NCBI GenBank assembly: GCA_016209205.1
Contig: JACQWQ010000064.1
Coordinates: 1 to 58,228 of the forward strand
Source of the DNA: Chloroflexota bacterium
Lineage (GTDB): Bacteria > Chloroflexota > Anaerolineae > UBA4142 > SHND01
DNA: 58,228 nucleotides
Reading direction: 5' to 3'
The position numbers were made by a program, and so were the translations under genes. Position 1 is the first letter of the stretch, and each line of letters begins with the position of its first letter. A model generated the notes under the pieces. The model searched no databases. It had not been told where the DNA came from and saw only the letters and a list, made by a program, of their open reading frames with translations. Below, one piece after another: positions 10,225 through 51,542 of this stretch.

Positions 10225-10388
10225 ACATTCAACGGGTGTGCGTCAATTTTGTGGGTCGGTGGTCGCAAGCTCCTGCTCGCGTGGATTTGTCGAATGCACT
10301 TCATTCGCATCCACGTGGGGCACGCTGGATTACAAATCCAGCGCGAGCAGCGTCTTACCCAAAAACGTGACGCACACCCACATTCAAC
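10225..10388. mobile_element. Miniature inverted-repeat element (copy 1) with 9-bp target duplication
   Basis: The element spans 10234-10379 (146 bp). It begins GGGTGTGCGTCA and ends TGACGCACACCC, a perfect 12-bp terminal inverted repeat. The 9-mer ACATTCAAC flanks it directly on both sides (10225-10233 and 10380-10388). The interior folds into nested arms (CTGCTCGC with GCGAGCAG, a GTGGAT..ATCCAC arm, GCTGGATT with AATCCAGC). It has no open frame, so it must depend on a transposase supplied elsewhere. It landed just upstream of the ArsR-operon promoter; its right target copy contributes CAAC to the first operator-like palindrome. Confidence 0.9.
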
Positions 10389-14292: not shown

Positions 14293-14540
14293 GTTGCTGG
14301 AGGGTGTGCGTCACAATTTTGGGCGAATCAATTCGCTCGCGACAAAATCACGCAACCTGCCTTCGCAGGTTGGGATTTCAGTGTGCGGTCGCGAATCTAT
14401 TCGATTCGTTGCGAACTGTGTTCGCGAGCACACTTGTGTAGTTGTTGGCGCGATTTTTCCGATGAAGGCGATGGAATACATCGCACATCGGCAGCGCCCG
14501 CCGCGCCGACCCAAAACTTTGACGCACACCCGTTGCTGGA
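14293..14540. mobile_element. Miniature inverted-repeat element (copy 2) with 9-bp target duplication
   Basis: The element spans 14302-14531 (230 bp). It has the same 12-bp ends as copy 1 (GGGTGTGCGTCA / TGACGCACACCC) and the duplication GTTGCTGGA at 14293-14301 and 14532-14540. The interior is a string of hairpins (GCGAATCAATTCGC; AACCTGCCTTCGCAGGTT; CGCGAATC..GATTCGTTGCG; GATGAAGGCGATG..CATC). It lies between the PBP gene and the beta-propeller remnant. Nothing else is visible in the 380-bp gap. Confidence 0.9.
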
Positions 14541-16403: not shown

Positions 16404-16500
16404 CTAGAGCGAATTCCTAATTCGTATGTGGGCAAAAGACCTTTCGGGTTTCCGAAAACCCGAAAGGTCTACCCACCAATCAAAGTGGAATCCGCTCTAG
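16404..16500. mobile_element. 97-bp CTAG-ended miniature element (copy 1), IS630-like target
   Basis: It begins CTAGAGCGAATTCC and ends GGAATCCGCTCTAG; a TA inside CTAG at both ends fits the TA duplication known for IS630/Tc1 transposases. The core is AGACCTTTCGGGTTT and its complement AAACCCGAAAGGTCT, a strong hairpin. A nearly identical copy lies at 51446-51542. No coding capacity. Confidence 0.85.
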
Positions 16501-47387: not shown

Positions 47388-47515
47388 GTTGTGCTCCTTT
47401 GAAAACTATCAATTGTTTGCTGCGCGATTCGCAGTGTGCTTGAAATATAGAGCTGCGGAATTGCAGAGTCAAATGCACGCGCCACCGCGCTGGGGCGCTG
47501 TAAGTCATCCAGACC

Positions 47516-47676
47516 CCAAGTGTTTGGGAATTGCTTGCGATTCTTGGAATTGCTTGCGATTCTTGGAATCGCAAGCAATTCCGGCGCGTTATGCGACGCG
47601 TGGAGCGAACTCCGCTCCAGCAAGATCGCTGCGATGTGGCGATGTAGTTCATCGCATTTATCGCCAAACACTTGGT
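47516..47676. repeat. Hairpin-rich element with CCAAGTGTTTGG ends
   Basis: CCAAGTGTTTGG (47516-47527) and CCAAACACTTGG (47665-47676) are perfect 12-bp terminal inverted repeats. The interior holds duplicated GAATTGCTTGCGATTCTTG units opposite GAATCGCAAGCAATTC, GTGGAGCGAACTCCGCTCC, and GCGATGTAGTTCATCGC hairpins. No target duplication is evident. It fills the gap before the TAXI gene; no gene is visible in 47388-47816. Confidence 0.75.
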
Positions 47677-47816
47677 CTGGGTCGTCGCGACTTGTATTTT
47701 GACCAAAAATGCTATTGACAAGCCCATTAAGAATGCTAACCCAAGTCGAATCAATCTGGCGCACTCATCCTGCGGCGGACGTTTTTTTTGGCGCCAACCT
47801 GCGCAAGGAGCATCAC

Positions 47817-48787
47817 ATGAAATCCAGGCTCGTACTTGTCATCGTCGTTATTACTATTCTGCTAGTCATCGCGGCGGTGGGATATATCTATTATCAGCAG
47901 ACTCGCATTTACACCGTCCGAAGGGTGTGCGTCACAATTTTGGGTCGGCGCGCCGGGCGATGCCGATGTGCGATGTATTCCATCGCCTTCATCGGAAAAA
48001 TCGCGCCAACAACTACACCAAGTGTGCTCGCGAACACAGTTCGCAACGAATCGAATAGATTCGCGACCGCACACTGAAATCCCAACCTGCGAATTGATTC
48101 GCCCAAAACTTTGACGCACACCCCCGTCCGAATCGGCACTGCCACCAAAGGCAATATCAGCTATACAATCGGCGCAGCACTCGCCGCGCTCGTCCGCCGT
48201 GAGAATCCCCAAATCCAAATTCAAGTCGTCGAGACCAAGGGGGCCAAGGCCTCGACCCTGCCATTGTCAAAGAAATTACACGCGTGCTTTTTGATTTTCG
48301 GTTAGAATTAGCGGCGGCAGCGCCGCAAGCGACCGCCCTACAATCACCGGTAGATGCGGCAACGTTGAGTGTTCCGATTCACCAAGGCGCGCAAGCATAT
48401 TTCGAACGCGACAAACCCAATTTTCTACAGGAGAATTCCGACTATATTGGTTTGCTCATCACGTTTGCCACACTCGGCGGGTCCATATTTCTGGCGATGC
48501 GCGCGCGCATTGTGGCGCTGCAAAAAAATCGCGCCGACCAATACAATCAGGAAATTGTCAGTTTGATGGAGCAGGTACGCTCCACAACCGAGCCGCAGCA
48601 GGTGGACGCCGTAGAAAAGCGATTGTTCCAAATGTTCGAACAGGTCATCCAGGACATTGACCAAGACAATCTTACCGCCGATGCGCTCGGGTCGTTCACG
48701 CTCTCTTGGAACCAAGCGATAGAGACCGTGCGCCATCGGCGGATCATTCTCGGCGCGAAACCGGAATTGAATTCTGTGCCTGCCTGA
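47817..48787 (+). pseudogene. TAXI-type TRAP transporter receptor gene, interrupted and internally deleted
   Basis: AAGGAG precedes the ATG. The start encodes a signal anchor (LVLVIVVITILLVIAAVGYIYYQ) and then TRIYTV. After removal of the 201-bp element and one 9-bp duplicate, it continues in frame as RIGTATKGNISYTIGAALAALVRRENP, the typical TAXI substrate-binding start. After VVETKG (~48240) the frame is lost. The remainder lies in another frame from LDPAIVKEITRVLFDF: a C-terminal VPIHQGAQAYFERDKPNFLQE stretch, a transmembrane helix (YIGLLITFATLGGSIFLAM) and a cytoplasmic tail (to 48787). About 200 residues of the receptor core are missing. Confidence 0.85.
47914..48132. mobile_element. Miniature inverted-repeat element (copy 3) inserted in the TAXI gene
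   Basis: The element spans 47923-48123 (201 bp) with perfect 12-bp ends GGGTGTGCGTCA / TGACGCACACCC and the 9-bp duplication CCGTCCGAA at 47914-47922 and 48124-48132. Its interior is nearly identical to the reverse complement of the interior of the copy at 14302-14531, less 29 bp, while the end-specific bases (CACAATTTTGGG left, CCCAAAACTT right) keep the same orientation. It adds 210 bp and brings an in-frame stop (codon ending at 48077). Confidence 0.93.
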
Positions 48788-48814: not shown

Positions 48815-50713
48815 ATGAAACAACCCACCTTTACCGAACGTTTGCGTTACGCGTTTGACAACACGATGTCGAAAGGCGCGATTGCGCTGATCGCGTGGCT
48901 CGCGCTGATTTCCGTTGTGTTCATTCTCGTGATGGCAGCCATCATCACCATTTCCGGTGTGGCGAACGCGCCCGAGCCGGACGCGGGCGCCCCGGATTTT
49001 GTTGAAATCGCGTGGCGCAGTTTGATGCGCACCATGGACGCCGGCACCATGGGCGGCGATACCGGCACGCCCGGTTATCTGCTGGGCATGTTCGTCGTCA
49101 CGCTCGGCGGCGTATTCATCATCAGCACCTTGATCGGCGTGTTGACCAGCGGCATCGAAGCCAAACTCGAAGAGCTGCGCAAAGGGCGCTCGTTCGTCGT
49201 CGAGCAGAATCACACGCTCATTCTGGGGTGGACGCCGCAGATTTTTACAATCATTTCCGAACTCGTCGCGGCGAACGCGAATCAGAAAAACTCGTGCATC
49301 GTCATTCTCGCGGACAAGGACAAGATCGAGATGGAAGACGAACTGCACGCGCGTGCGCCGAATACGGGGCGCACGCGCGTGGTGTGTCGCACCGGCAGTC
49401 CGCTCGACCCCACCGATCTGGAAATTGTAAATCCTTATGCCGCGCGCTCGATCATCGTCCTTGCGCCGGAAGTGGACGAACCGGACACACACGTCATCAA
49501 AACGATTCTCGCGATCACGAACCATCCAAAGCGCAAGCCGGCCAAGTACCACATCGTCGCCGAAATTCGCGATCCGAAAAACCTGGAGGTCGCGAAAATG
49601 GTCGGGCGCGATGAAGCCCAGATCGTGCTGGTCGGCGACTTGATTTCGCGCATCACGGTGCAAACGTGCCGCCAGTCCGGCCTCTCGGTCATCTACACCG
49701 AACTGCTCAACTTTGGGGGCGACGAAATCTATTTCAAGCCGGAACCCGCGCTCGTGGGCAAAACATTCGGCGCGGCGTTGTTGGCGTACCAAGATTCTGC
49801 CGTGATGGGTGTGCAAGCGGCAGACGGCACGGTGCGCCTCAATCCGCCGATGGACACGCCCCTTCGCGCCGGGGACAAAATTATCGCGATTTCGGCGGAC
49901 GACGACACGATCAAACTGAGCGGACAAACAAAGCTGGACATTGACGAAGACGCGATGCAGCCCAAGGAATCTGCCGCGCCCGCGCCTGAACGCACACTGA
50001 TTTTGGGGTGGAATCATCGCGGTCCCTCCATCTTGCGCGAACTCGACCACTATGTTGCCGCCGGTTCGCAAACAGTGGTCGTGGCGAATGTGCCGGATCT
50101 GCCCCAAGAACTCGATGCCGCCAAAAATCAAACAGTTACGTTTCAGCAAAACGAAACGACCGACCGCAAGGTGCTCGATGCGCTCGACGTGGCATCGTAC
50201 AATCACATCATCGTGCTCAGTTATTCGGACCTGTTGGATGAGCAACAAGCGGACGCGCAAACACTCATCACTCTGCTGCACTTGCGCGATCTGAGCGAAC
50301 GCACAGGCAAGGAATTGTCCATTGTCAGTGAGATGCTCGACGTGCGCAACCGCGAACTCGCCGAAGTCACGCGCGCGGATGATTTCATCGTCAGCGATCA
50401 GCTGATTAGTTTGATGCTCTCCCAAGTTTCCGAGAACAAACACCTGAACGCGGTCTTTGCCGATTTGTTCGATCCCGAAGGGGCGGAGATTTATCTCAAG
50501 CCGGCAAGCGATTACGTAAAACCCGGCGCGTCCGTCAATTTTTACACGCTGGTCGAAGCGGCGCGGCGGCGCGGCGAGGTCGCAATCGGTTATCGTTTGA
50601 AACGGGATGCGCGCGACGCGGCAAAAGCGTACGGCGTTGTCGTCAACCCGGAAAAATCGAAAAAGGTCGAGTTCTCGACGGGCGACAAGATCATTGTCAT
50701 TGCGGAAAACTGA
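48815..50713 (+). CDS. CASTOR/POLLUX (DMI1)-like ion channel
   Basis: 632 residues. Two N-terminal transmembrane helices (GAIALIAWLALISVVFILVMAAIITI and YLLGMFVVTLGGVFIISTLIGVL) flank a pore region SLMRTMDAGTMGGDTG, matching the CASTOR family and lacking a TVGYG filter. Two cytosolic Rossmann/RCK-like modules follow (HTLILGWTPQIFTIISEL; RTLILGWNHRGPSILRELD), each with nucleotide-binding-like strands. Plant members gate nuclear calcium/potassium; bacterial ones are uncharacterised. It starts 27 bp after the TAXI remnant and ends at a strong terminator. Confidence 0.88.
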   Translation: MKQPTFTERLRYAFDNTMSKGAIALIAWLALISVVFILVMAAIITISGVANAPEPDAGAPDFVEIAWRSLMRTMDAGTMGGDTGTPGYLLGMFVVTLGGVFIISTLIGVLTSGIEAKLEELRKGRSFVVEQNHTLILGWTPQIFTIISELVAANANQKNSCIVILADKDKIEMEDELHARAPNTGRTRVVCRTGSPLDPTDLEIVNPYAARSIIVLAPEVDEPDTHVIKTILAITNHPKRKPAKYHIVAEIRDPKNLEVAKMVGRDEAQIVLVGDLISRITVQTCRQSGLSVIYTELLNFGGDEIYFKPEPALVGKTFGAALLAYQDSAVMGVQAADGTVRLNPPMDTPLRAGDKIIAISADDDTIKLSGQTKLDIDEDAMQPKESAAPAPERTLILGWNHRGPSILRELDHYVAAGSQTVVVANVPDLPQELDAAKNQTVTFQQNETTDRKVLDALDVASYNHIIVLSYSDLLDEQQADAQTLITLLHLRDLSERTGKELSIVSEMLDVRNRELAEVTRADDFIVSDQLISLMLSQVSENKHLNAVFADLFDPEGAEIYLKPASDYVKPGASVNFYTLVEAARRRGEVAIGYRLKRDARDAAKAYGVVVNPEKSKKVEFSTGDKIIVIAEN

Positions 50714-51445: not shown

Positions 51446-51542
51446 CTAGAGCGGATTCCTAATTCGTATGTGGGCAAAAGACCTTTCGGGTTTCCGAAAA
51501 CCCGAAAGGTCTGCCCACCAATCAGACTGGAATCCGCTCTAG
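51446..51542. mobile_element. 97-bp CTAG-ended miniature element (copy 2)
   Basis: CTAGAGCGGATTCC at 51446 and GGAATCCGCTCTAG ending at 51542 are perfect 14-bp inverted ends; the interior is the same as in copy 1 (16404-16500) apart from a few substitutions, including the AGACCTTTCGGG hairpin. It lies between two minus-strand membrane-protein genes and can supply a terminator on either strand. Confidence 0.88.

What the first reader, a model, noticed from the sequence alone, without database searches (positions are those of the whole stretch)
47817..48787. Miniature element cleanly interrupts a TAXI receptor gene; excision restores the frame
The 201-bp element with perfect 12-bp ends is flanked by CCGTCCGAA on both sides. 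Joining the gene across one duplicate gives IYTV-RIGTATKG, an expected TAXI substrate-binding start. This proves insertion by transposition rather than chance similarity. The same gene has also lost about 200 codons after VVETKG, so the decay had at least two steps.
Basis: partly seen in the sequence, partly recalled or inferred. Interest (0 to 1): 0.8.

Follow-up and report, generated by a model that had tools for sequence, protein, structure and literature searches.

The report
Mini-transposon inside a dead transporter gene
A 201-base non-coding hitch-hiking transposon, one of many relatives in this bacterium's genome, jumped into the start of a nutrient-uptake gene that has also lost its middle, so the gene is dead; this is ordinary genome decay, except that the element family turns up in most sampled relatives and the enzyme that moves it was not found.

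Summary
The 201-bp element (47923-48123) has 12-bp perfect ends (22-nt arms, 20/22) and a perfect 9-bp target duplication (CCGTCCGAA). I bounded 26 elements with such ends in this genome (84-358 bp): 11 of 26 have identical 9-bp flanks and 16 of 26 differ by at most 1, against 0 of 650 cross pairings. Without the element the 5' reading matches TRAP_TAXI 1-70 unbroken (28.5 bits); with it there is no TAXI match. The gene has also lost about 180-200 codons, with a change of frame, so removing the element leaves a stop at 48303. 'Excision restores the frame' is true only locally; the gene stays dead. No intact orthologue was found: 2 of 396 class genomes match, this one and a C-terminal remnant. 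The element is a MITE; its ends (GGGTGTGCGTCANNNTTTTGGG, up to 2 mismatches) occur in 17 of 20 genomes of its order. No transposase was found, in a search that was not exhaustive. The focal copy also has a 30-bp deletion and swapped end triplets, as if its interior were inverted. It is a new member of a known kind, of modest interest.

The parts
47817..47922 (+). 5' end of the TAXI gene: start codon, hydrophobic anchor/signal segment and first strand of the domain, up to and including the first target duplicate
   Evidence: joined 5' reading matches TIGR02122 1-70
47914..47922 (.). 9-bp target-site duplicate, left copy CCGTCCGAA
47923..48123 (+). 201-bp non-autonomous element (MITE) of the GGGTGTGCGTCANNNTTTTGGG family
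47923..47944 (+). left terminal inverted repeat, 22 nt (outer 12 perfect)
48102..48123 (-). right terminal inverted repeat, 22 nt
48075..48077 (+). in-frame stop (TGA) contributed by the element
48124..48132 (.). 9-bp target-site duplicate, right copy CCGTCCGAA
48126..48262 (+). second piece of the TAXI N-terminal part (frame 0), up to the deletion junction; TIGR02122 32-79, NMT1_3 1-43
48241..48262 (.). approximate junction of the internal deletion (about 177-199 codons missing, 5' part frame 0, 3' part frame 2); exact point not resolvable without an orthologue
48251..48787 (+). 3' part of the TAXI gene (frame 2): end of the binding domain (TIGR02122 266-318), a hydrophobic stretch and a C-terminal extension; stop at 48785-48787
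14302..14531 (-). second copy of the same subfamily in the window (230 bp, TSD GTTGCTGGA)
10234..10379 (.). third element in the window with the same ends but another interior (146 bp, TSD ACATTCAAC)

Best explanation
The element is a MITE, a short non-coding DNA transposon moved in trans. A DDE-type transposase supplied from elsewhere (inferred, not found) would bind the 22-nt inverted ends, cut the element out or copy it, and join it to a target cut with a 9-nt stagger; gap repair then made the two CCGTCCGAA copies (the duplication is shown, the enzymology inferred). It landed in codons of the first strand of a TAXI substrate-binding protein gene without shifting the frame, but its own sequence brings a stop. 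Independently, before or after, the gene lost about 180-200 internal codons and its frame, so the locus is a pseudogene whatever the element does. Within the element, a 30-bp deletion between GCGAA repeats (slippage, inferred) and an inversion of the interior relative to the ends (exchange between its own inverted arms, inferred) were seen in this copy alone among those compared.
For: Perfect outer ends and a perfect 9-bp duplicate. 57 exact 12-mers against 0 for the reversed control; 82 sites against 3 for the 22-nt form with up to 3 mismatches. 26 bounded elements: identical 9-bp flanks in 11 of 26, at most 1 mismatch in 16 of 26, 0 of 650 cross pairings; 10 and 14 of the 24 that were admitted on their ends alone. 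Full or partial sibling copies elsewhere in the genome, many 95-99% identical over the aligned part (which scored 40 of 228 candidates). 5' reading without the element: TIGR02122 1-70, 28.5 bits; with the element: no TAXI match at E up to 1; the piece after the element alone: 20.6 bits. Missing middle in both family profiles and against two intact relatives. Swapped triplets: left CAA in 1 of 15 and right AAG in 1 of 16 ends compared, both in this copy. 30-bp deletion.
Against: No transposase with these ends was found, in a search that was not exhaustive. 10 of 26 bounded elements lack a 9-bp duplicate with at most 1 mismatch, so some copies are old, rearranged or wrongly bounded; one of them (L015) contains 5 N of assembly gap. 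No orthologous empty site was found, so the insertion is inferred from the duplicate, the family profile and the sibling copies.
Confidence: 0.94

Rival explanations
1. The element is a reversible switch: precise excision turns the TAXI gene back on (phase variation).
For: 210 nt keeps the frame and the joined 5' reading matches the family.
Against: After removal the frame stops at 48303 because of the internal deletion and frame change. None of the 30 ORFs of at least 200 aa scanned near 16 of 19 unpaired ends matched a transposase or recombinase family.
Confidence: 0.02
2. The repeats are chance or a terminator/REP-like hairpin that grew in place, not an insertion.
For: The element folds strongly (z -5.9) and one inner palindrome also occurs outside this family.
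Against: 9-bp duplicates in 16 of 26 sibling elements with at most 1 mismatch, 0 of 650 in cross pairings; same ends with different interiors at dozens of sites.
Confidence: 0.01
3. The ends are those of a specific known IS family (IS4/IS5-IS903, ISKra4, IS256 or ISAs1, which by recall make 8-10 bp duplicates), and the MITEs are its deletion derivatives.
For: A 9-bp duplicate and a GGG start fit several such families (recalled; no call).
Against: No opposed pair of ends flanked any of the 8 DDE_Tnp_1 and 2 ISKra4 matches of this genome, the 29 relative DDE_Tnp_1 loci tested out of 133 matches outside this genome, or the 8 Transposase_mut loci. Single near matches were seen (L086, L172, L183, L189); two of them (L172, L189) were followed and no partner was found. 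Flanks were at most 1.5 kb and often cut by contig ends, so this does not exclude the rival.
Confidence: 0.4
4. The gene was intact when the element landed, so the insertion caused the loss of function (as against landing in an already dead gene).
For: The 5' part still reads as a good TAXI start; the duplicate is unmutated.
Against: Nothing tells the order; an insertion into a gene already deleted would be neutral and easily kept.
Confidence: 0.45

Closest known systems
Bacterial MITEs such as Chunjie (Geobacter uraniireducens), Correia/NEMIS, Nezha (Chunjie and Correia: PMC10969869, sections 2 and 3 read; NEMIS and Nezha: passages of PMC3733652)
   Same: Short, non-coding, inverted ends, target duplications in younger copies, dozens of copies of varied size; Chunjie also disrupts a gene cluster (phosphate uptake)
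   Different: Sequences of those elements were not compared here; the ends described here were found, beyond chance level, only in Chloroflexota contigs, and no parent IS is known
TAXI-family TRAP transporter solute-binding subunit (TIGR02122 / PF16868)
   Same: The pieces match the two ends of the family profile
   Different: About 180-200 middle codons missing and the frame changed; carries a C-terminal hydrophobic plus helical-looking extension, matched by two plasmid-borne proteins only
MITEAba12 (Acinetobacter; PMC6382973, seen in search listings only)
   Same: Non-autonomous IS-derived element spread over a family of bacteria, as its title and listed abstract say
   Different: Sequence not compared here

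Membership tests
MITE | total length below about 500 bp | tested here: met
   201 bp; siblings 84-358 bp; criterion from PMC10969869 section 2.1
MITE | terminal inverted repeats of about 4-30 bp | tested here: met
   12 perfect, 20 of 22 overall
MITE | flanking target-site duplication | tested here: met
   9 of 9 here; 11 of 26 perfect in the family against 0 of 650 cross pairings; 10 of 24 without the two admitted on their duplication
MITE | no coding capacity for a transposase | tested here: met
   201 bp, longest stop-free stretch 66 codons in any frame
MITE | multicopy in the genome | tested here: met
MITE | AT-rich (typical, not required) | tested here: not met
   54% G+C, against 53% for the gene around it
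MITE | autonomous IS with the same ends | tested here: inconclusive
   none found among the transposase loci tested nor in 30 ORFs near unpaired ends; not exhaustive
TAXI substrate-binding protein gene | match to TIGR02122 / PF16868 at the start of the binding domain | tested here: met
   28.5 bits, positions 1-70, for the joined 5' reading; below the whole-protein cut-off of 84.35 bits, as expected of a fragment
TAXI substrate-binding protein gene | match at the end of the binding domain | tested here: met
   TIGR02122 266-318, 23.3 bits; PF16868 236-286, 18.8 bits; both below the whole-protein cut-offs
TAXI substrate-binding protein gene | complete two-lobe binding domain (functional gene) | tested here: not met
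   PF16868 positions 44-235 absent; frame change

The most novel reading that the evidence does not exclude
The GGGTGTGCGTCANNNTTTTGGG elements form an order-wide superfamily that no longer has an autonomous IS. A stand-alone chromosomal transposase without its own ends might maintain it, as RAYTs do for REPs, and its interiors might be assembled from palindromic modules shared with unrelated miniature elements.
Probability: 0.1. Interest if true: 0.6.

Novelty: new member of a known kind. Interest (0 to 1): 0.3.

Why it matters
It is a clean example of gene decay by a miniature transposon. It also points to a family of elements in Anaerolineales-type Chloroflexota that I did not see described in the listings of five searches of the held library (one search listed 20 of 107 papers and one search listed 10 of 23). 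The same ends with unrelated interiors in 17 of 20 genomes of the order, and no transposase found, make the mobilising enzyme a definable question.

Tried and rejected
Autonomous partner. The ends were looked for around the 2 ISKra4 and 8 DDE_Tnp_1 matches of this genome, 29 relative DDE_Tnp_1 loci (133 matches outside this genome by the table) and 8 of 8 Transposase_mut loci. No opposed pair flanked any of them, but flanks were at most 1.5 kb and often cut by contig ends. All 30 ORFs (stop-to-stop, at least 200 aa) within reach of 16 of the 19 unpaired ends were scanned with Pfam. An earlier scan covered 23 of the 30 and showed 25 of 37 families. No transposase family came up; 14 of the 30 had no Pfam match at E 0.001. 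ORFs shared between loci near the ends looked by eye like regulators, transporters and the like. Near matches to the ends: L189 lies inside a coding region, L172 had no partner, L086 looks like a decayed tiny element of 56 bp, L183 was not followed.

Spread. Viral contigs held 0 exact matches. Plasmids held none for a 43-nt query of joined ends. Two Clostridia contigs among 67 genome-contig stretches are at the level expected by chance (about 1.9 for 19 fixed bases, own arithmetic). Neither showed a partner end, but in one of them (L107) the contig ends 37 bases outside the match, so none could be seen.

Orthologue. 60 genomes and 396 class genomes gave only a C-terminal remnant in G011. In the 15 TAXI loci of relatives that I tested (L210-L224) the 3' piece matched at best with E 0.011, over its first 52-57 residues, so these appear to lack the extension. 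PDB gave two unrelated chains at E 0.68 and 0.89.

Hairpins in the window at large: 45 against 23-32 in 8 shuffles, many terminator-like by eye; not pursued.

Full report
Observation. The window holds, at 47923-48123, a 201-bp stretch with 12-bp perfect inverted ends GGGTGTGCGTCA (22-nt arms, 20 of 22 paired). It lies between two copies of CCGTCCGAA at 47914-47922 and 48124-48132.

More than chance. GGGTGTGCGTCA occurs 57 times in the 6.38-Mb genome and its reversed control 0 times. The fuller end GGGTGTGCGTCANNNTTTTGGG occurs 82 times with up to 3 mismatches, against 3 for the control. From the fetched stretches I bounded 26 elements of 84-358 bp. In 11 of 26 the 9-bp flanks are identical and in 16 of 26 they differ by at most one base; pairing left flanks with right flanks of other elements gave 0 of 650 with up to two mismatches. 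Two of the 26 (L253, L047) had weak ends and were admitted on their duplication; without them the counts are 10 and 14 of 24. The 11 perfect duplicates are all exactly 9 bp; one further copy (L004) has a 7-bp direct repeat. 10 of 26 have no 9-bp duplicate with at most one mismatch, so some are old, rearranged or wrongly bounded; one (L015) holds 5 N of assembly gap.

The family. Elements with these ends have several unrelated interiors. The window holds three: 10234-10379 (146 bp), 14302-14531 (230 bp, same subfamily as the focal copy) and the focal one. Over 20 genomes (this one and 19 of its genus and order), 17 have the ends with up to 2 mismatches, the control giving 1 hit in all, in G018; several of the 17 have only one to three sites (whose list of places was cut). 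A scan of genome contigs gave 67 stretches: 64 titled Chloroflexi or Anaerolineae/-ales, one Candidatus Aquidulcis (Chloroflexota) and two Clostridia. The last two are at chance level; no partner end was seen, though in one the contig ends too soon to tell. In 80 loci (some the same place twice), 11 hold a pair with identical 9-bp flanks; the longest pair listed is 420 bp, without a duplicate. Near-full copies of the focal subfamily were seen only in this genome: of 60 genomes 13 had any match, and outside this genome the listed matches were under 40 bases (which scored at most 13 candidates a genome). The host is therefore inferred to be an Anaerolineales-type Chloroflexota; no record names it.

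The focal copy. Against its siblings it lacks 30 bp next to the right end, between two GCGAA copies, which fits slippage; no other bounded copy in that alignment has the same gap, though C11 has an overlapping one. Its end triplets (the NNN) are exchanged: 12 of 15 left ends carry AAG and 11 of 16 right ends CAA (two of the 16, L054 and L246, have other interiors), while the focal copy alone carries CAA on the left and AAG on the right. The simplest reading is that its interior was inverted between its own inverted arms; whether before or after it landed is unknown. As single-stranded DNA it folds far better than shuffles (z -5.9).

The gene. From 47817 the frame gives a hydrophobic anchor and then IYTV; after the element it goes on with RIGTATKG. 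Without the element the 5' reading matches TIGR02122 (TRAP_TAXI) over positions 1-70 with 28.5 bits; with the element there is no TAXI match at E up to 1. The piece after the element alone gives 20.6 bits, so the gain across the joint supports the empty site. Element plus duplicate is 210 nt and keeps the frame; the break is a TGA inside the element at 48075.

The internal deletion. Pfam NMT1_3 positions 1-43 lie in the piece before the junction and 236-286 in the piece after it (both scores are below the whole-protein cut-off, as fragments are). Two distant relatives with the same C-terminal extension, from Methylobacterium bullatum and Halioglobus pacificus plasmids, match the 3' piece with E 7e-21 and 9e-12. 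They have 199 and 177 residues in the gap, between points that I chose by eye; BLAST did not align the 5' piece to them in the right place. The 3' part lies in frame 2 and the 5' part in frame 0, so removing the element leaves a protein that stops at 48303. The claim that excision restores the frame is thus true at the insertion point and false for the gene.

Orthologues. The 3' part was found in 2 of 396 class genomes: this one and G011, where about 107 residues of the C-terminal extension remain behind a glycoside-hydrolase-like gene (the gene type is judged from the translation by eye). The TAXI loci of relatives that I tested (15) appear to lack the extension. The order of deletion and insertion stays open.

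How it moved. By analogy with IS-derived MITEs (PMC10969869, its sections 2 and 3 read), a DDE transposase acting in trans would recognise the ends and join them to a 9-nt staggered cut; the duplication is shown, the rest inferred. No transposase with these ends was found, and none of 30 ORFs near unpaired ends matches a transposase family, but the search was not exhaustive. The mobiliser may be lost, lie in a contig gap, or act without ends of its own.

Where elements land. Only the focal copy was examined as a gene insertion; open-frame lengths on either side of the 26 elements suggest that most lie between genes and that L066 may be another coding insertion (by eye).

Literature. The 12-mer and its reverse complement gave no paper in the held library. 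'Miniature inverted-repeat transposable' with Anaerolineae gave 0 papers. With Chloroflexi it gave 5 (listing seen, and passages of PMC3733652), none of which appeared from these to describe this family. Two broader searches were seen as partial listings only.

Verdict. It is a MITE insertion in a pseudogene: ordinary in kind, with a modestly interesting family behind it.

Noticed in passing
47509-47684: A second miniature element type, with ends like C(C/A)AGACCCCAAGTGTTT, lies just upstream of the TAXI start; similar ends occur at other fetched loci (e.g. L271, L279, L066, L079, L232).
   Followed up: partly
47964-47994 (element positions 42-72) and L264-L279: The palindromic module around GCGATGTATTCCATCGC inside the focal element recurs at 16 other fetched places: 7 with 2 mismatches, 9 with what looks by eye like a one-base length change. 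Some lie within elements of different ends (CAAGACCCCAAGTG type in L271 and L279, TGACAGGATTAACAGGATT type in L276-L278): a shared hairpin module.
   Followed up: partly
16437-16470 and 51479-51512: Identical 34-bp hairpin AGACCTTTCGGGTTTCCGAAAACCCGAAAGGTCT at two places in the window.
   Followed up: no
L256 (G001:C94) 1508-1711: In a same-genus genome, near-identical end-like sequences GGGTGTGCGTAAAGTTTTTGGG/A stand in one orientation at 91-bp spacing, three in a row.
   Followed up: no
L066 2064-2200: A 137-bp member of the family sits directly beside a CAAGACCCCAAGTG-type element and between open frames of 107 and 209 codons; possibly another coding or element-in-element insertion.
   Followed up: no
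48815-50713: The open frame just downstream (632 aa) encodes a Castor/Pollux-type ion channel-like protein with TrkA_N/RCK domains.
   Followed up: no
L208 1450-1785: In G011 the C-terminal extension of this TAXI subfamily survives as a remnant of about 107 residues.
   Followed up: partly
L061 2566-3345: An ORF near an unpaired end in this genome matches AbiEii, a nucleotidyltransferase of type IV toxin-antitoxin systems.
   Followed up: no
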